Shown here piece by piece: positions 5,695 to 35,801 of a stretch of DNA of 35,943 nt; within the stretch, counting starts at the first letter, position 1; each line of letters begins with the position of its first letter. The notes below the pieces were generated by a model. It did not search any database. It was not told the origin of the DNA and saw only the letters and a program-made list of their open reading frames with translations. The stretch lies in NCBI GenBank assembly GCA_016932115.1, contig JAFGDM010000093.1:1-35943 (forward strand). The letters are read 5' to 3'. This stretch comes from Deltaproteobacteria bacterium. Its GTDB lineage: Bacteria > Desulfobacterota > DSM-4660 > Desulfatiglandales > HGW-15. The translations under genes were made by a program, and so were the position numbers.

Positions 5695-7437
5695 ATGGAT
5701 CAATTGCTTCGCATTGATATGGGCGCTCAAGGGGGTCCAAAAGTTACTGTTACAGAACCGGGCGAGTATGAAGGCCTGGGTGGTCGAGCCCTTACCTCCG
5801 CTATCATCTCCAAGGAAGTTCCACCTCTGTGTCATCCACTGGGTGCTGACAATAAACTTGTCATTGCCCCTGGTCTCTTGAGCGGAACTGCAGCCGCCAT
5901 GTCCGGTCGCCTTTCCATTGGCTGCAAGAGCCCGCTTACCGGAGGCATCAAGGAGGCGAATGCAGGCGGCCAGCCTTCCCAGATGATTGCTAGGCTTGGT
6001 TACGCCGCTATCGTGCTTGAAGGGAAACCGGAAGATGGATCACTTTACAAGATCTTTATCAACAAAGACGGCGTTAAAATCATTCCGGACGGTAGCCTCA
6101 AAATGCTTGGCAACTACGATCTCGTGGACAAATTGAAAGGGGAGTATGGAGACAAGATCGGGGTGATCTCCATCGGTCCCGCCGGAGAAATGAAGATGTC
6201 GGCTGCTTCCATCGCCTGCACGGATATGGAAGTCCGTCCAACACGGCACGCTGGCCGTGGAGGTGTGGGCGCCGTCATGGGCGCCAAAGCGGTAAAAGCC
6301 ATTATCATCGATGACGCGGGGATGAAGATGCGCTCACCCAAAGATTCGAAGGCTTTTCAGGAAGCCAACAAAAAGTGGGTTGAGGGAATCCGCAAACATC
6401 CGGTCACTGGACAAGGCCTTCCTACCTATGGAACAAACATCCTCACCAACGTGATCAATGAAGCGGGCGGGTATCCGACCCACAACTTCATGTGGGGTCG
6501 TTTTGAGGGATGTACCAAGATAAGTGGGGAAACCCAGGCTGAACTGGAAAATGCAAGAGGCGGCGAAGGATCGGCAACCCACGGCTGCCATCGAGGGTGC
6601 ATCATTCGATGTTCCGGAACCTTTTACGATAAGGACGGACAATACATCACGAAGCAGCCTGAATATGAAACGGTCTGGTCCCATGGAGGCAATTGCGGCA
6701 TCGATGATCTCGACGCCATTGCCATGCTGGACCGTCTCGACGATGACTTCGGCTTGGACACTATTGAGATGGGCGCCACGGTTGGAGTAGCGATGGAAGC
6801 CGGATTGGCTAAGTTCGGCGACACTCAGGGAGCCATCAATCTGGTTAAAGAAGTTGGGAAAGGAACCCCCTTAGGCCGGATCCTGGGCAACGGAGCCGCG
6901 GTGACCGGCAAGGTTTTCGGCATTGAAAGAGTGCCTGTCGTAAAGGGGCAAGCGATGCCGGCCTATGACCCTCGTACTGTCCAAGGCATCGGCGTGACCT
7001 ATGCTACAAGCACGATGGGCGCAGATCACACCGCCGGATATGCGGTGACCGCCAATATCCTGGGAGTGGGAGGAAAGGTGGATCCCCTCAAACCCGAAGG
7101 CCAGGCTGAACTTTCCAGAAACCTCCAAATTGCAACAGCCGCAGTGGATTCGACAGGCATGTGCCTTTTCGTTGCCTTCGCGGTGCTGGATCAACCCGAG
7201 ACCTTTCAGTCCCTCATCGATATGATAAACAGCTTTTACGGGCTAAAACTTACCGCAGACGATGTCACGGCTCTTGGAAAATCCGTCCTAAAAAATGAGA
7301 AAGACTTCAATCTCAGAGCGGGCTTCACCTCAAAGCATGACCGCTTGCCTGAATTCTTTAAGAAGGAGCCTTTGCCGCCTCACGATATCGTTTTCAACGT
7401 GTCCGACAAGGATCTCGATTCGGTATTCAACTGGTAG
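5695..7437 (+). CDS. Aldehyde ferredoxin oxidoreductase family protein (AOR1)
   Basis: 580-residue member of the tungsten-bispterin AOR family, which oxidises aldehydes to acids with ferredoxin or reduces acids with low-potential electrons. The AOR N-terminal domain spans ~1-200 (GGRALTSAIIS, RLSIGCKSPLTGG, RHAGRGGVGAVMGAKAVKA). The cluster ligands appear as C298-x3-C302-x3-C306 (GCHRGCIIRC), with a fourth Cys at 490 (DSTGMCLF). PEYETVWSHGG and STMGADHTAGY are the expected active-site and pterin regions. The Cys spacing C-x3-C-x3-C differs from the classical C-x2-C-x3-C of AOR2. The gene has a strong AAGGAGG seven bases before the ATG, its own promoter and its own terminator. Neighbouring MoaD- and ThiF-like genes suggest cofactor assembly. 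The substrate cannot be read from sequence. Confidence 0.93.
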   Translation: MDQLLRIDMGAQGGPKVTVTEPGEYEGLGGRALTSAIISKEVPPLCHPLGADNKLVIAPGLLSGTAAAMSGRLSIGCKSPLTGGIKEANAGGQPSQMIARLGYAAIVLEGKPEDGSLYKIFINKDGVKIIPDGSLKMLGNYDLVDKLKGEYGDKIGVISIGPAGEMKMSAASIACTDMEVRPTRHAGRGGVGAVMGAKAVKAIIIDDAGMKMRSPKDSKAFQEANKKWVEGIRKHPVTGQGLPTYGTNILTNVINEAGGYPTHNFMWGRFEGCTKISGETQAELENARGGEGSATHGCHRGCIIRCSGTFYDKDGQYITKQPEYETVWSHGGNCGIDDLDAIAMLDRLDDDFGLDTIEMGATVGVAMEAGLAKFGDTQGAINLVKEVGKGTPLGRILGNGAAVTGKVFGIERVPVVKGQAMPAYDPRTVQGIGVTYATSTMGADHTAGYAVTANILGVGGKVDPLKPEGQAELSRNLQIATAAVDSTGMCLFVAFAVLDQPETFQSLIDMINSFYGLKLTADDVTALGKSVLKNEKDFNLRAGFTSKHDRLPEFFKKEPLPPHDIVFNVSDKDLDSVFNW

Positions 7438-8487: not shown

Positions 8488-9351
8488 ATGGAAGAGGAAG
8501 TTATAAAGAACATCCGGAGCAAGTCGAGAGTGATCAGAGACCCGGCAGGCCGGAATGTCGGTATCCTTGAAGAGCGTCACGCCCTTGAGATAGGGCGAAT
8601 TCACGGCTTGATGCTTCATGAGATCTATATCCTAACTCTCAAACTCGGCATCTGCCCTTACCGTTATGTCAGAAATCGGGAAATACTTTCCCTTGAAGAG
8701 TTATTGAGATTGGCTGAGTCGAGGGTTGCCGTTGTAGGGGCAGGAGGTCTTGGGGGAACGGTCCTTTCAATATTAGGCCGGACAGGAATCGGTCATCTCG
8801 TGGTGATAGATTTCGATGTGTTTGATGAGAGCAACTTAAACCGCCAGGCTTTTTCCCACTGCGAAAATCTGGGAAAACCCAAAGCGGAGGAAGCTCGTTC
8901 CCAGCTTGAACGAATCAACCCCGGAGTGGATGTCTCGGCATACCAAATTCGCCTCAACGCGGAAAACGGGAAGAACCTGCTGAAAGATTGTCAGGTGGTT
9001 GTCGACGCTCTGGACAACGTCGAAAGCCGTATAACTCTGATGGAAGCGGCAAAGGCTCTTGGCGTTCCCCTTGTTCACGGCGCTATTGCAGGCTTTGAGG
9101 GACAGATTATGAGTTTATTTCCCGGAGATGAAGGTCTCAGCCGAATCTATGGAAAGGCAAAGAAGGGGGAAAACGATTTTACAGGGCCCGAGGCGGTCCT
9201 GGGCGTTCCAGGCATTACGGCCGCGGTTATCGCCGCCTTTCAAGCCATGGAAGTGATCAAGATCCTCCTGAAGCGCGGACGTCCTTTTACGAATACCATG
9301 GTTTACCTTGACCTTGAAAGAGGGGAAATAAATCAATTCAGATTTGATTAG
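8488..9351 (+). CDS. ThiF/MoeB-family adenylyltransferase (E1-like)
   Basis: 287-residue E1-like enzyme that adenylates the C-terminal glycine of a MoaD/ThiS-type carrier. After an unusual ~77-residue N-terminal extension comes the nucleotide-binding core GAGGLG (84-89). It is followed by the acidic strand VVIDFDVFDESNLNRQ with its ATP-contacting Arg, then VVVDALDN and HGAIAGFEGQI. The paired CxxC zinc motifs of classical MoeB are absent, and no clear catalytic cysteine is seen, so it is a short HesA/ThiF-like variant. AAAGGG precedes the ATG by seven bases. It is divergent from the MoaD-like gene, its probable substrate, and leads a two-gene operon with the ComB-like gene. Confidence 0.88.
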   Translation: MEEEVIKNIRSKSRVIRDPAGRNVGILEERHALEIGRIHGLMLHEIYILTLKLGICPYRYVRNREILSLEELLRLAESRVAVVGAGGLGGTVLSILGRTGIGHLVVIDFDVFDESNLNRQAFSHCENLGKPKAEEARSQLERINPGVDVSAYQIRLNAENGKNLLKDCQVVVDALDNVESRITLMEAAKALGVPLVHGAIAGFEGQIMSLFPGDEGLSRIYGKAKKGENDFTGPEAVLGVPGITAAVIAAFQAMEVIKILLKRGRPFTNTMVYLDLERGEINQFRFD

Positions 9352-30401: not shown

Positions 30402-31178
30402 TTAAGCTAAGATCGGGGGCTGTCTCTCCACCTTTCGCCGAATGGCCTCAGCCGTCTCCTTGGTGAAGGCAGCAAGAGCTTTCATTTTGTCCTCATCAAG
30501 GCTTGTCTTGAATCCCACGGCCCAGATCGCCGACATGGCGTGTCCAACCCCTAAAATGGGGGCGGCTACGGCCCTTACGCCGAGGATGTACTCTTCATCG
30601 TCCGTAGCAAACCCTTTAGCTTTTACCGATCCTATTTCTTCAATATACCGATCTACATCGGTGATCGAGTTTTCCGTATACCTGGTAAGTCCTTTTGAAC
30701 CAATGACTCTTAAGGCTTGATTTTCATCCATCATGGCCAAAAAGACTTTGCCCGCAGCTCCAGCAAAAAGGGGAATCGTTGTGCCGATCGGTGACGTGAT
30801 TTTCAGTTCCGTTCTCGGTTCGACAATTTCAAGTATGGTTACATGATCCGAATTCAGGAGGCCTAAAAATACGGAAGTCTGTGTCCTTTCCATCAATTCT
30901 TCCATGAAAGGCCTGGCAAGATCCTTGAGTTCAATCTGGGAATAGGCCGTCTTGCCCAGCTCGAACAAGGTGAAACCCAGGGTATATCGTTTTGTTAGAG
31001 GATCCCGACCCACAGCGCCGACCTCCTCAAGCGCAGAGGTCATACCGTGTACAGTGCTTTTTGCAATACCCAGCTCACGGGCAATTTCACTGATTCCGAT
31101 ACCCTCTTTAATTGAAGCGATCAGTTTCAGAATCTCAAAGGCTTTGATCACAGAAGGTGCATAATATCCCTTTGCCAT
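30402..31178 (-). CDS. IclR-family transcriptional regulator
   Basis: 258-residue regulator. A winged helix-turn-helix (~8-70, GISEIARELGIAKSTVHGMTSAL) is followed by the IclR effector domain (~80-250; ITSPIGTTIPLFAGAAGKVFLA, RGVRAVAAPILG-type region). The effector is unknown. It is divergent from the operon of zinc ribbon, AOR2 and ferredoxin. The palindrome GTTCA-N6-TGAAC lies directly upstream of its own ATG, and another lies just after the AOR2 promoter. It therefore probably represses both itself and the enzyme operon until an effector is present. Confidence 0.92.
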   Translation of the reverse strand: MAKGYYAPSVIKAFEILKLIASIKEGIGISEIARELGIAKSTVHGMTSALEEVGAVGRDPLTKRYTLGFTLFELGKTAYSQIELKDLARPFMEELMERTQTSVFLGLLNSDHVTILEIVEPRTELKITSPIGTTIPLFAGAAGKVFLAMMDENQALRVIGSKGLTRYTENSITDVDRYIEEIGSVKAKGFATDDEEYILGVRAVAAPILGVGHAMSAIWAVGFKTSLDEDKMKALAAFTKETAEAIRRKVERQPPILA

Positions 31179-31326: not shown

Positions 31327-31354
31327 TTGACAAACCCATAGTTTCTGATATTAT
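31327..31354 (+). promoter_or_regulatory. Predicted sigma70 promoter for the AOR2 operon
   Basis: Perfect TTGACA (31327-31332), 16-base spacer, TATTAT (31349-31354). It has the same architecture as the promoter at 19957-19984. The leader to the ATG at 31477 is about 115 bases. Confidence 0.7.
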
Positions 31355-31364
31355 CATAAATTAT

Positions 31365-31380
31365 GTTCATCGGAATGAAC
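31365..31380. promoter_or_regulatory. Putative IclR operator, site A (AOR2 operon)
   Basis: Perfect inverted repeat GTTCA-TCGGAA-TGAAC (in fact GTTCAT-CGGA-ATGAAC). It begins ten bases after the -10 box, so it covers the start of transcription. It matches site B upstream of iclR. Confidence 0.75.
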
Positions 31381-31476: not shown

Positions 31477-31749
31477 ATGACACCTGAAAAAGACGGCATT
31501 TCAACCGCAGAAAGCCTACGCTCAACCAGGACATACGGCAAGATCCGGTGTCACAATCCCACATGCATGGAAAGGCTTGAGCCCAAAAAGGGCGATAAAA
31601 CGATTAAATGTCCGACCTGCGGAATGGAATTTCGCCTGGCATGGGTCAAGGATGGATTCCCCAGAATCCGCGGTCCGGTCTGGGAAACAAACCGAAAAAT
31701 CGCTGAAGAGGAACTTTCCAGAAAGCTCAAGCAGAAGGAGGGGAAATAA
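31477..31749 (+). CDS. Small zinc ribbon protein preceding AOR2
   Basis: 90-residue protein with a likely zinc ribbon: CHNPTC, then ~15 residues, then CPTCG (GKIRCHNPTCMERLEP ... TIKCPTCGMEF). A basic-acidic helical tail follows. An in-frame ATG at 31471 touches the AAAGGAG, so the ATG at 31477, six bases from it, is chosen. The AOR2 start lies two bases after its stop codon, and AGGAGG in its last codons serves AOR2. It is first in the IclR-controlled operon. I do not recognise the family; a regulatory or maturation role for AOR2 is inferred from position only. Confidence 0.8.
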   Translation: MTPEKDGISTAESLRSTRTYGKIRCHNPTCMERLEPKKGDKTIKCPTCGMEFRLAWVKDGFPRIRGPVWETNRKIAEEELSRKLKQKEGK

Positions 31750-31750
31750 C

Positions 31751-33691
31751 ATGTCTTTAGACAGAAAGATTGCTTACATTGATCTCAGTACAGGAGACAT
31801 CCAGACGAAAGCCATCCCTCTCGAGGTTCGAAGGAAATTCCTCGGAGGCAGAGGGCTGGATGCGTACCTTCTTTACAATCACACCACGCAGGGATGCGAT
31901 CCCATCGGCCCGGATAACGCCCTCATGGTGAGCGGTGGGTTTCTTTGCGCCACATGCGCTTCGGCCACCTCCAGAACCCATGTGATGGCCAAATCCCCTC
32001 TAACAGGTTTATTGGGAAGCGCCAACATGGGCGGGTTCTTTTCCCCTGAAATGGCTTGGGCGGGATTTCATCACCTGGTGATTAAAGGCAAGGCCGAACA
32101 CCCCGTTTACATTTATATCCACAACGGGGAAATCGAAATACGAGATGCCCGCGACCTGTGGGGCCTGAGCGTTACCGAAGCTCAGTGGGCCATCCGCGAC
32201 AAGCTCGGCGACCAGGAAGTCAAAAGCATGGTTTGCGGACCGGCCGGTGAGAACCTTGTCCGATACGCCAACGTCATGACGGGAATTAAAAATGCAGGTG
32301 GAAGAACGGGTATGGGTTGCGTAATGGGCTCTAAGAACCTCAAAGCTGTGGCCGTGAGAGGAACCATGGATATTCCCATTGCACACCCCAAAGAAGCCCT
32401 GGAATTCAACAAGCGATTCATCGACCAGATCGTGAGCGCGAAGGTGAACCAAACCCAGGGAACCCTTGGAACCCCTTTTATCTGGGGCGCAACCAATTCC
32501 TGGGGTGGAATCAGAACCAGGAATTTCCAGTACAACCAGTGCGAGTATGCGGACGATATCGAACCGGAGCGCCTCGACGAAATCGCAACGGAGACTATGG
32601 GCCCCTACCATATGACCGGCTGTTTCGGTTGCCAGGTGCACTGCCGTGCCCAATACAAGATCCCTGATGGCCCCTATGCCGGGAGGTATGACGAAGGACC
32701 GGAGTACACCTCCCAGGGCGCCTTCTGCGGAGAGACTGACACGCCGAGAGCCACTACCCTTCTTACGGCAAACCATCTGGTGGATCAGTACGGGGTGGAC
32801 AACCTTGAAATCGGAAGCCTTATTTCCTGGGCTATGGAACTCTATGAGCTGGGAATTATCACAAGCAAAGACACCGACGGCGTAGACCTCAGGTTCGGTA
32901 ATGACGAAGCGGTCATTGAGATGATCGACCGCATCTGCCAAAGAAAGGGATGGCTTGCCGACGCGCTGGCCGACGGCGGCGTTGCGGCGTCCAAAAAAAT
33001 CGGCAAGGACTCCTTCAGCTATCTGATCCAGGTCAAAGGCATGAGCAACCTTCACTCCGATGAGCGGGCCACGCCGGCCCTTGCGCTTAACATCGCTACA
33101 TCCTCAAGAGGATCAGACCATCTGCGAAGCCGGCCTGCGATCGACCTGTACCACCTCCCTGAACCGGTCATGCGAAGGATTTACAGCAGCCCGGTCCCCT
33201 ACGACGGCCCCCTGAGTTCCGAGCACACGGAATACATCGGTAAAGCATGGCAAGTTTTCTGGCATGAAAATTGTTACATGGCTGTGGACTGTCTGGGCAT
33301 TTGCAAATACCACACCACTTTTCTGGGCGCCACCCTCCCCAACTTTGAAGATTGGGCCAAGGTGATTTACTACAATACGGGCCTCGAATTCACTCCTCAG
33401 GAAATCTGGGGGGTCGCCGAAAGATGCAACAACCTGGAACGACTTTTCAACCTGAGGGAAGGTCTAACAAAAGATGATCCTGAAAAGGGTGATGTGCTCA
33501 ACCACCGTTATCACGACGAACCCGCAAGGCGCGGGGCGTTGGACGTTATCGGTCGAGTCATCGAAAAGGACAAGTTCATAAAGATGCGATCTGAACTGTA
33601 CGAGCACAAGGGCTGGAATGAGGACGGTCTCCCCACACCCGAAACCCTTAAGAGACTGGGCATCGACGCTGAACCGTCCCACCTGGTGTAA
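31751..33691 (+). CDS. Aldehyde ferredoxin oxidoreductase family protein (AOR2)
   Basis: 646-residue tungsten-bispterin oxidoreductase. N-terminal AOR domain: KIAYIDLSTGDI, FLGGRGLDAYLLYNH, MAKSPLTGLLGSANMGG and NAGGRTGMGCVMGSKNLKAVAV. The [4Fe-4S] ligands are C291-x2-C294-x3-C298 (CFGCQVHC) and C518 (DCLGICKY). GPEYTSQGAFCG, and ATSSRGSDHLRSR with its pterin-binding DHLR, match true AOR/FOR enzymes more than the BamB branch of benzoyl-CoA reductase. The frame is open upstream across the zinc ribbon gene, but ATG 31751 with AGGAGGGG is clearly right. The co-transcribed ferredoxin 23 bases downstream is the probable electron-transfer subunit. Substrate unknown. Confidence 0.94.
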   Translation: MSLDRKIAYIDLSTGDIQTKAIPLEVRRKFLGGRGLDAYLLYNHTTQGCDPIGPDNALMVSGGFLCATCASATSRTHVMAKSPLTGLLGSANMGGFFSPEMAWAGFHHLVIKGKAEHPVYIYIHNGEIEIRDARDLWGLSVTEAQWAIRDKLGDQEVKSMVCGPAGENLVRYANVMTGIKNAGGRTGMGCVMGSKNLKAVAVRGTMDIPIAHPKEALEFNKRFIDQIVSAKVNQTQGTLGTPFIWGATNSWGGIRTRNFQYNQCEYADDIEPERLDEIATETMGPYHMTGCFGCQVHCRAQYKIPDGPYAGRYDEGPEYTSQGAFCGETDTPRATTLLTANHLVDQYGVDNLEIGSLISWAMELYELGIITSKDTDGVDLRFGNDEAVIEMIDRICQRKGWLADALADGGVAASKKIGKDSFSYLIQVKGMSNLHSDERATPALALNIATSSRGSDHLRSRPAIDLYHLPEPVMRRIYSSPVPYDGPLSSEHTEYIGKAWQVFWHENCYMAVDCLGICKYHTTFLGATLPNFEDWAKVIYYNTGLEFTPQEIWGVAERCNNLERLFNLREGLTKDDPEKGDVLNHRYHDEPARRGALDVIGRVIEKDKFIKMRSELYEHKGWNEDGLPTPETLKRLGIDAEPSHLV

Positions 33692-33714
33692 TTTTCGGAT
33701 GAGGAGGAAACGTA

Positions 33715-34212
33715 ATGGCTAAAGCGCTTTATATCGATTATCAGAAATGTACGGGCTGCAGACTTTGTGAGCTTGTTTGCTCCGTATTCCACGACGGCAT
33801 TTCCAATCCGGCAAGAAGCCGGATCCGGGTTATAAAATGGGAGGCCGAAGGGCTTTATATACCCATGTCGTGTCAGCAATGCCAGGATGCACCATGCATG
33901 AATGTGTGCCCGGTTAAGGCGATCTACATGGATCATGATCTGGAAAGAATCGTGGTCGACTACGACAAGTGCATCGGCTGCCGCTCCTGCGTGGCCGTGT
34001 GCCCCTTCGGTGCTATGAACTTCAACGTTTATGACAGGAAAGTCTTCAAGTGCGACTTCTGCGACGGTGAGCCTCAGTGCGTTCGTTTTTGCGACGAAAA
34101 GGCCGTGGATTATGTGGAAGTCGACGATGTAAGCATCCTGAAGAAGAGGAATGCGGCCCTGAGGGTATCCCGTGCCGGCAAAGAGGCTTCCACCCTCATG
34201 GCGCAGATCTAG
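33715..34212 (+). CDS. Four-cluster ferredoxin-type electron-transfer subunit
   Basis: 165-residue protein of the HycB/DmsB/AorA-like type with four cysteine groups for four [4Fe-4S] clusters: CTGCRLCELVC, CQQCQDAPCMNVCP, CIGCRSCVAVCP and CDFCDGEPQCVRFC. It starts 23 bases after AOR2 with AGGAGGAAACGTA before the ATG, and a strong terminator follows. In related enzymes such a subunit passes electrons between the W-pterin large subunit and an external carrier. No FAD-binding third subunit (as AorC) is present, so electrons may go to free ferredoxin or another complex. Probably cytoplasmic, since no signal peptide is seen. Confidence 0.93.
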   Translation: MAKALYIDYQKCTGCRLCELVCSVFHDGISNPARSRIRVIKWEAEGLYIPMSCQQCQDAPCMNVCPVKAIYMDHDLERIVVDYDKCIGCRSCVAVCPFGAMNFNVYDRKVFKCDFCDGEPQCVRFCDEKAVDYVEVDDVSILKKRNAALRVSRAGKEASTLMAQI

Positions 34213-34234
34213 CGCCTGATCACCCTTTCAGCAG

Positions 34235-34265
34235 AGGTTTCCGGTAGCAGCCGGAAACCTTTTTT
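34235..34265 (+). terminator. Rho-independent terminator after the AOR2 operon
   Basis: AGGTTTCCGG (34235-34244) pairs perfectly with CCGGAAACCT (34251-34260), loop TAGCAG, then TTTTT. It ends the zinc ribbon-AOR2-ferredoxin transcript and separates eutA. Confidence 0.95.
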
Positions 34266-34370: not shown

Positions 34371-35801
34371 ATGGAGATCAGCAAGGTCGAACTTCTTTCC
34401 GTAGGTATTGATGTGGGCAGTGCGACCAGCCATCTGGTGTTCTCCAATCTGGTCCTCGTAAGAGACCAGTTGTCTCCTACACTGCGCTTCAATATCCAGG
34501 AAAGAAAAATCATCTATAAAGGAATGATCATCCCCACGCCTTTTTTGGGAGACAAGACCATCGACATTAACGCACTGACCGAATTTTTCAAAAGCGAATA
34601 CAAGCGAGCCGGCATCGACCCCGACCGTATTCAAACAGGCGCAGTGATCATTACCGGAGAGTCGGCCAAGAAACAGAACGCAGCCCAAATAGCAGAAGCC
34701 CTCTCCAAGGAGGCTGGAAAATTCGTTGCCTCCACGGCAGGGCCAAACTTCGAAAGTCTTCTTGCCGCCATGGGCTCGGGAGCAACAGCCAGATCCAAGG
34801 ATTTTGGCAAAACCGTATTGTCCTGCGACATCGGGGGCGGAACATCCAATCTGGCCGTCTCAAAAAACGGGCAGGTTCTCTCAACAAGTTGTATCGCCGT
34901 GGGCGGAAGATTGCTTGGCCTGGATTCCGAGATAAGGATCCGGCAGCTTGCCGACCCCGCTCTAAAAGTCATGCGCCATATCGGTCTGGATTACCGACTT
35001 GGAGATCAAATCCCCAAAGACGATATTGGAAAAATAGCTTCCAAAATGGCGGAAGTGCTCATTGAGGTAATGATGGGGCCTGCAAGGTCTTCCTTGGCCA
35101 AGCAGCTCATGGTTACCGGTGATCTGGATTTTTCTGTCCCCATCGATGAATATATGTTTTCAGGAGGAGTGGCAGAGATTATCTACGATCAAAAAGGCCG
35201 TTACAATGATATCGGAAGCATTCTTGCAAAAAAGATCCGCTTTTTGATTCCTCAACTCAAGTCTCCAGTCGTCGAGCCGGCCAACAAAATCAGAGCCACA
35301 GTTATCGGCGCAGGGGCTTACTCCCTTTCCGTTTCAGGCTCATCGGGATTTATGGATGAGAAGCTCATCCTTCCCCTCAGGAATATCCCTGTTCTAAGGG
35401 TAGATGTGGAACATGCCAAACTGAGTTTGGAGCATGTAATTTCAAAGACGAGACTAGCTTTTCAAAGACACGATTTGGTGGAAGGTCAAGAAATAGTCGC
35501 TTTGTACTTCAAGGACCCCGTTCGGATCAATTATCCTGTGCTGGAGTTGTTCGCCAAGGCCGTGGAAACCGCCCTCCCAAACTCAATCGCGAAGGGTATG
35601 CCGATTATCCTCATTTTTGAAAAGGACGTCGCTTGTAGTGTAGGGAATGTTATCCGGCGGGAAACAGCCCTTCAAACCAACCTCTTGTCCCTTGATGAGT
35701 TGTCCCTGAATGATGGGGATTGGATTGACATCAGTGAGCCGTTGCTCCATAGACAGGTCTTTCCGGTTACGGTGAAGTCCCTCGTTTTCCCGGCGAATTG
35801 A
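34371..35801 (+). CDS. eutA: EutA-like ethanolamine ammonia-lyase reactivating factor
   Basis: 476-residue ASKHA-fold protein. The N-terminal VGIDVGSATSHLVFS and central SCDIGGGTSNLAV phosphate-binding loops are typical of EutA. EutA releases damaged cobalamin from ethanolamine ammonia-lyase in an ATP-dependent way. The body (KGMIIPTPF, GAVIITGESAKKQNA, FVASTAGPNFESLLAA) is close to EutA as I know it. The ATG lacks a good ribosome-binding site, so the start is uncertain. It follows the AOR2 operon but is split from it by a terminator and a palindrome. eutB and eutC are not present, and the window ends 140 bases later. Confidence 0.9.
   Translation: MEISKVELLSVGIDVGSATSHLVFSNLVLVRDQLSPTLRFNIQERKIIYKGMIIPTPFLGDKTIDINALTEFFKSEYKRAGIDPDRIQTGAVIITGESAKKQNAAQIAEALSKEAGKFVASTAGPNFESLLAAMGSGATARSKDFGKTVLSCDIGGGTSNLAVSKNGQVLSTSCIAVGGRLLGLDSEIRIRQLADPALKVMRHIGLDYRLGDQIPKDDIGKIASKMAEVLIEVMMGPARSSLAKQLMVTGDLDFSVPIDEYMFSGGVAEIIYDQKGRYNDIGSILAKKIRFLIPQLKSPVVEPANKIRATVIGAGAYSLSVSGSSGFMDEKLILPLRNIPVLRVDVEHAKLSLEHVISKTRLAFQRHDLVEGQEIVALYFKDPVRINYPVLELFAKAVETALPNSIAKGMPIILIFEKDVACSVGNVIRRETALQTNLLSLDELSLNDGDWIDISEPLLHRQVFPVTVKSLVFPAN

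What the first reader, a model, noticed from the sequence alone, without database searches (positions are those of the whole stretch)
31477..34212. AOR operon with an uncharacterised zinc ribbon protein and a four-cluster ferredoxin
The operon of zinc ribbon, tungsten enzyme and polyferredoxin is compact (2- and 23-base gaps), has one promoter, one operator and one terminator, and lacks the FAD subunit known from AorABC. The zinc ribbon as first gene is not a known AOR component, so it may be a maturation factor, subunit or regulator of a new AOR complex.
Basis: partly seen in the sequence, partly recalled or inferred. Interest (0 to 1): 0.6.

Follow-up and report, generated by a model that had tools for sequence, protein, structure and literature searches.

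The report
Zinc-ribbon partner of a tungsten oxidoreductase
In anaerobic, mostly sulfate-reducing-type bacteria, one family of tungsten enzymes always travels with its own tiny, previously undescribed zinc-ribbon-like protein made from the same operon, which suggests that these enzymes need an extra dedicated partner that current classifications of tungsten enzymes leave out.

Summary
The operon is real: a divergent IclR-type regulator; a sigma70-like promoter; a palindromic operator; then a 90-aa zinc-ribbon-like protein (ZR), a tungsten-oxidoreductase large subunit (AOR, 646 aa), a 16-Cys AorA/WorS-type ferredoxin, and a terminator. The ZR-AOR gap is 1 base, not 2. The association is far more than chance. 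In 58 loci fetched with ZR, every genuine ZR not cut by a contig end (56 of 57) precedes this AOR. In 395 Desulfobacterota genomes no clean exception appeared either way; 48 of 54 ZR places lie in the AOR operon, the other six being cut by contig or scaffold ends or an AOR deletion. The 12 other AORs of this genome have no ZR. The operator GTTCAT-N4-ATGAAC recurs with 0-1 mismatches in 23 of 25 regulator-ZR gaps. In a sister branch ZR coexists with an FAD subunit, so it does not replace it. The AOR keeps the cluster cysteines and His448 but has Thr, Ser and Arg at P. furiosus Glu313, Tyr427 and Tyr452, so "aldehyde" oxidoreductase is unproven. Best reading: a Class II WOR with a dedicated zinc-ribbon component, more likely subunit than chaperone. 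Contact was not shown; the only structural test was inconclusive.

The parts
30402..31178 (-). IclR-type regulator, divergent
   Evidence: PF09339 1.6e-13, PF01614 8e-34; orthologues cluster with this operon in 41 loci
31327..31354 (+). sigma70-like promoter TTGACA-16-TATTAT
   Evidence: 11 of 12 consensus positions; region total not above shuffles, so a consensus match only
31365..31380 (.). operator GTTCAT-CGGA-ATGAAC, just downstream of the -10 box
   Evidence: 0-1 mismatch in 23 of 25 IclR-ZR intergenic regions; only perfect copy in the held genome
31477..31749 (+). ZR, zinc-ribbon-like protein (90 aa): R-C-x4-C ... C-P-x-C-G-x-E-(F/Y/W)-R ... P-R-I-R-G-P-V-W
   Evidence: no Pfam/NCBIfam family above cut-off
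31735..31743 (+). AAGGAGGGG ribosome-binding site of AOR inside the end of the ZR gene
   Evidence: sequence; gap of exactly 1 base in 47 of 55 relatives, SD-like stretch at the ZR end in 47 of 55
31751..33691 (+). tungsten oxidoreductase large subunit (AOR/WorL, 646 aa)
   Evidence: PF02730 + PF01314; nearest solved chains 1aor and 9mqx
33715..34212 (+). four-[4Fe-4S] small subunit (AorA/WorS type, 165 aa, 16 Cys)
   Evidence: best PDB match 8c0z_C (A. aromaticum AOR small subunit) 6.8e-41
34233..34262 (+). intrinsic terminator, 13-pair stem followed by T run
34371..35801 (+). EutA-family protein after the terminator; recurrent neighbour, probably a separate transcription unit
   Evidence: PF06277 4.4e-133; near the operon in 22 loci; below EutA equivalog cut-offs

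Best explanation
The operon encodes a Class II-type tungsten oxidoreductase (WorL + WorS) with a dedicated small zinc-ribbon-like partner. ZR is made first and is translationally coupled to the large subunit. It most likely binds that large subunit as a small accessory subunit: two Cys pairs hold a structural metal ion and the invariant strand K/R-I-R-G-P-V-W forms or braces the contact. Electrons from the substrate would go from W-pterin to the AOR [4Fe-4S] cluster, then the four clusters of the small subunit, then ferredoxin or a neighbouring Hdr-type carrier. A divergent IclR regulator represses the operon from one operator over the start region until an unknown effector appears. Shown: gene order, conservation, obligate linkage, clade specificity, operator. 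Inferred: metal, binding, subunit role, repression, electron path. Substrate unknown; several proposed AOR catalytic residues are replaced.
For: ZR precedes AOR in 56 of 57 genuine ZR loci; the one exception is cut by a contig end. In 395 Desulfobacterota genomes all ZR and clade-AOR places that contigs allow to be judged are linked. ZR tracks one AOR branch (100/99 support), and 12 paralogous AORs in the same genome lack it, so it is client-specific, not a general W-cofactor factor. Linkage survives gene rearrangement to the far end of an AOR-ferredoxin-MoaD-like-FAD operon. Gap of 1 base in 47 of 55, with an SD-like stretch inside ZR. Invariant Cys pairs, W and GPVW across branches. ZR-AOR distances correlate at 0.90. 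ZR-branch AORs share a C-terminal EPSHL-type tail that nearly all other AORs examined lack.
Against: No physical contact shown. The frame-joined ZR-AOR model was poor overall (mean pLDDT 62.9) and ZR was no more confident than alone. The same genetics would fit a client-specific chaperone. Metal binding is inferred from Cys spacing only. Linked genes share history, so the 0.90 correlation is weak evidence for binding (AOR-ferredoxin is 0.84).
Confidence: 0.5

Rival explanations
1. ZR is a client-specific maturation chaperone (working like the TorD/NarJ chaperones of molybdoenzymes) that inserts W-pterin or an Fe-S cluster into this AOR and is absent from the finished enzyme.
For: Operons of this branch and of AorABC carry MoaD-like maturation genes (aorD and aorE in PMC6365974 are not in the purified enzyme). 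ZR is small, has a charged C-terminal tail in many members, and is made just before its client.
Against: Twelve other AORs in the same genome manage without it. The conserved 1-base coupling is more typical of stoichiometric partners, but does not exclude a chaperone.
Confidence: 0.3
2. ZR is a redox subunit: a rubredoxin-like Fe(Cys)4 site that passes electrons between the enzyme and an external carrier.
For: Four Cys with a CPxCG knuckle resembling rubredoxin; neighbours are electron-transfer proteins such as Hdr-type subunits and a membrane polyferredoxin.
Against: The first Cys pair is C-x4-C in the window branch; no rubredoxin or other family passes cut-off; four clusters in the small subunit already provide the path.
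Confidence: 0.1
3. ZR is a regulator (RNA- or DNA-binding, or a co-repressor of IclR).
For: First gene of the operon; many small zinc ribbons bind nucleic acids (general knowledge; weak profile matches to such proteins).
Against: Orthologues sit last in other AOR operons; a divergent IclR with a conserved operator is already present.
Confidence: 0.05

Closest known systems
Class II WOR (WorL + WorS), e.g. P. furiosus ASOR/WOR5 (6x1o/6x6u) and C. bescii GOR
   [quoted passage not shown] PMC13328260)
   Different: Obligate ZR gene; order ZR-large-small; second-shell residues of AOR replaced
Class III WOR AorABC of Aromatoleum aromaticum (8c0z)
   Same: Its small subunit is the best PDB match of the ferredoxin; the ZR sister branch has FAD and MoaD-like genes as in aorABC + aorD/aorE
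   Different: No FAD subunit in the window operon; no zinc protein is mentioned for AorABC in PMC6365974 or PMC10413684; A. aromaticum Glu331 is replaced here
LysW / RING2-IBR-type zinc ribbons
   Same: Weak fold resemblance to the ZR model
   Different: No significant sequence or structure match
AOR-linked MoaD/MoeB neighbourhoods (PMC1779556)
   Same: AOR operons with dedicated W-cofactor genes; MoaD-like genes near 13 ZR loci
   Different: ZR does not match the ThiS/MoaD family and is not mentioned in the passages found there

Membership tests
Class II WOR | Large subunit with both AFOR domains (IPR013983, IPR001203) | tested here: met
   PF02730 and PF01314 over almost the full length
Class II WOR | Adjacent small subunit with four [4Fe-4S] clusters | tested here: met
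   165 aa, 16 Cys, matches 8c0z_C and 6x1o_B
Class II WOR | Ferredoxin as electron carrier | not testable with these tools
   needs enzyme assay
Class III WOR (AorABC) | FAD subunit WorN/AorC in the operon | tested here: not met
   absent in the window; present with ZR in the sister branch
AOR sensu stricto | [4Fe-4S] ligands Cys288, 291, 295, 494 (P. furiosus numbering) | tested here: met
   Cys291, 294, 298, 518, invariant
AOR sensu stricto | Second-shell residues Thr243, Glu313, Tyr427, His448 (PMC12096430) | tested here: not met
   Thr241 and His457 kept; Thr320 and Ser436 replace Glu313 and Tyr427, Arg461 replaces Tyr452; 82 of 85 scored ZR-tagged rows have Thr at Glu313
Zinc ribbon | Two Cys pairs on knuckles | tested here: met
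   C25, C30, C45, C48 invariant; first pair CxxC in Chloroflexota and sister branch, C-x4-C in the window branch
Zinc ribbon | Bound zinc | not testable with these tools
   metal analysis needed
Any named Pfam/NCBIfam family (for ZR) | Score above the curated cut-off | tested here: not met
   best IBR 18.6 bits against cut-off 24.3; HypA 13.2 against 28.9
EutA (downstream gene) | EutA equivalog score and a partner EutB | tested here: not met
   380.8 bits against cut-off 598; no EutB in the held genome

The most novel reading that the evidence does not exclude
A new class of tungsten oxidoreductase whose minimal unit is ZR + large subunit + four-cluster subunit. ZR is an obligate structural or gating subunit, and the altered second-shell residues mean that the enzyme acts on something other than simple aldehydes.
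Probability: 0.35. Interest if true: 0.7.

Novelty: new variant of a known kind. Interest (0 to 1): 0.52.

Why it matters
Tungsten oxidoreductases are split into 92 clades and few have a known role (PMC13328260). A small protein that is strictly tied to one branch, and that I could not find in the published descriptions held here, gives that branch a genetic marker and a testable missing component. It could matter for anyone who tries to produce these enzymes from large plus small subunit alone. The loss of residues proposed as catalytic in AOR warns that annotation as aldehyde oxidoreductase may be wrong for a group found in many Desulfobacterota, here with a local IclR switch that could be used to find the substrate.

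Tried and rejected
ZR as replacement of the FAD subunit: rejected, both coexist in the sister branch. ZR as general W-cofactor factor: rejected, 12 other AORs in the genome have none. Apparent ZR without AOR in G393: an AOR start follows ZR, then a scaffold gap of N. Apparent AOR without ZR in G350: a transposase-like end and a contig end replace the upstream region (transposase is my reading, not HMM-tested); G200 ends before the ZR position; G319 is split over contigs. Ethanolamine-derived acetaldehyde as substrate (EutA next door): not supported, no EutB in the held genome. Regulon search with the operator: only one perfect site, and one-mismatch sites are no clearer than the control pattern. 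ZR structure (pLDDT 71.5, pTM 0.48) and PDB fold search: no significant match. Frame-joined ZR-AOR model: inconclusive. Benzene-activation cluster paper PMC13101534: no AOR or zinc mention.

Full report
Observation. ZR runs 31477-31749, AOR 31751-33691, the ferredoxin 33715-34212, all on the + strand. The ZR stop TAA and the AOR ATG are separated by one C, not two bases. The promoter TTGACA-16-TATTAT (31327-31354) is followed by the palindrome GTTCATCGGAATGAAC (31365-31380), and a 13-pair terminator lies at 34233-34262. The number of promoter-like matches in the region is not above shuffled expectation; the position of this one fits.

ZR. No Pfam or NCBIfam model passes its cut-off. Across 33 orthologues the Cys pairs and P-R-x-R-G-P-V-W are invariant; in the wider set of 30 from both branches and Chloroflexota the core R-C..C..R, C-P-x-C-G-x-E, W and G-P-V-W remains (a few positions only nearly invariant), and several members are only about 62 aa. 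AlphaFold gives a modest model (pLDDT 71.5, pTM 0.48): a small beta sheet that includes the RGPVW strand, then a helix. Foldseek against the PDB found nothing at E <= 0.001; the best were RING2/IBR domains, with LysW further down.

Is ZR tied to AOR? A scan of 11.3 million genome contigs with the window ZR gave 58 loci; one (L074) is a chance match. In 56 of the other 57 an orthologue of this AOR follows, mostly with the ferredoxin next; the remaining one, L057, ends inside ZR. A profile search of 395 Desulfobacterota genomes gave 54 ZR places of 38 bits or more in 51 genomes: 42 are directly upstream of the AOR, 6 are in the same operon but last, and 6 are G094 (an AOR fragment at a contig end, same operon), G393 (AOR start, then a scaffold gap), G253 (AOR internally deleted, ferredoxin kept) and three contig ends. 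Conversely, of 49 AOR places scoring 785 bits or more, 46 are linked to ZR; the other three are contig-limited or have a transposase-like sequence upstream. Lower-scoring AORs have no ZR except fragments of this same branch (such as G217 and G319) and a divergent ZR beside the 560-bit AOR of G355. The window's genome has 13 AOR genes and one ZR. In 301 Chloroflexota genomes two have a strong ZR, both next to such an AOR; the weak G472 match has none of this branch nearby. Only these two phyla were screened by profile.

Phylogeny. In a 64-row tree the ZR-linked AORs form one branch (100/99; 34 with ZR and 4 without: one contig end, one with a transposase-like upstream region, and two long-branch neighbours L062_5290 and L063_5169 whose place is unsure). 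L157 with its divergent ZR falls outside it. The label needs five changes on the tree against 21.4 in shuffles, so it is clustered but not shown to have a single origin.

Two operon types. Type 1, as in the window: ZR-AOR-ferredoxin, usually with IclR, and with EutA-family, MoaD/ThiF, radical-SAM, Hdr-type, MTHFR-C-terminal or membrane polyferredoxin genes nearby. Type 2: AOR-ferredoxin-MoaD-like-FAD/NAD oxidoreductase-ZR, i.e. a Class III layout. ZR is thus a companion of the large subunit in both, not a stand-in for FAD.

Coupling and control. The ZR-AOR gap is exactly 1 base in 47 of 55 and the AOR ribosome-binding site is written into the end of ZR; I read the frequent GGK ending of ZR as a by-product of that. 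The operator is found with 0-1 mismatches in 23 of 25 divergent IclR-ZR regions. The window's genome holds one perfect copy, which fits a local regulator. Its place just downstream of the -10 box suggests repression (inference).

The enzyme. Cluster ligands and His448 of P. furiosus AOR are kept (Cys291, 294, 298, 518; His457), as are Thr243 (Thr241) and Tyr312 (Tyr319). Glu313, proposed as the acid-base residue (PMC12096430; Glu331 in PMC10413684), is Thr320; Tyr427 is Ser436; Tyr452 is Arg461. Thr is found at the Glu313 place in 82 of 85 scored rows tagged as ZR-linked, while several paralogous rows have Glu. Nearby branches without ZR have also lost this Glu, so the loss does not go with ZR alone. 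The reaction may therefore not be ordinary aldehyde oxidation; this is inference from alignment. The small subunit is closest to the AOR small subunit of A. aromaticum (8c0z_C, 6.8e-41).

Contact test. I could only fold single chains. In L067 the ZR stop is directly followed by the AOR start, so reading that stop as Gly joins them. That is a device and not a claim that the fusion exists. The model was poor (pLDDT 62.9; much of AOR below 50) and ZR did not gain confidence. Nothing can be concluded from it.

Literature. The class scheme PMC13328260 defines Class II (large + four-cluster small subunit) and Class III (+ FAD); the word zinc does not occur in it. PMC6365974 describes aorD/aorE as MoaD-like and has no zinc either. 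Searches of the open-access library for AOR/WOR with zinc ribbon, zinc finger or zinc-binding terms gave no description of this protein. Subscription papers and supplementary files were not searchable, so 'undescribed' is limited to that.

Verdict. A real, conserved, branch-defining extra component of a known enzyme kind. Role: dedicated accessory subunit (0.5), client-specific chaperone (0.3), redox subunit (0.1), regulator (0.05).

Noticed in passing
window 5695-7437: A second AOR gene (580 aa) with a 209-aa ORF without Pfam match and a ThiF-family gene (8488-9351) downstream: a likely separate tungsten-enzyme cluster.
   Followed up: partly
window 34371-35801: EutA-family protein without EutB in the held genome, recurrent next to this AOR operon in 22 loci; it may serve another partner enzyme.
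   Followed up: partly
L018:4040-5805, also L023, L056, L060-L063: Recurrent ferredoxin + MTHFR C-terminal domain (PF12225) genes near the operon, in several loci beside a second, divergent AOR.
   Followed up: partly
L046, L048, L051-L053 upstream of ZR: FAD/Fer4 (HdrA-like) and Fer4_8 (HdrC-like) genes directly upstream of ZR, a possible electron-bifurcating link; in L127-L130 a different pair that looks HdrC/HdrB-like sits there.
   Followed up: partly
L019 and L124:7436-8467: ZR and ferredoxin kept while AOR is reduced to an N-terminal stub joined to the ferredoxin: assembly error or true deletion.
   Followed up: no
L028:6471-7499 and orthologues in 10 loci: Membrane polyferredoxin (about 337 aa) between or near the IclR and ZR genes, possibly a membrane electron acceptor for the enzyme.
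   Followed up: no
G000: Thirteen AOR-family genes in one 3.7-Mb genome, a large set of tungsten oxidoreductases.
   Followed up: no
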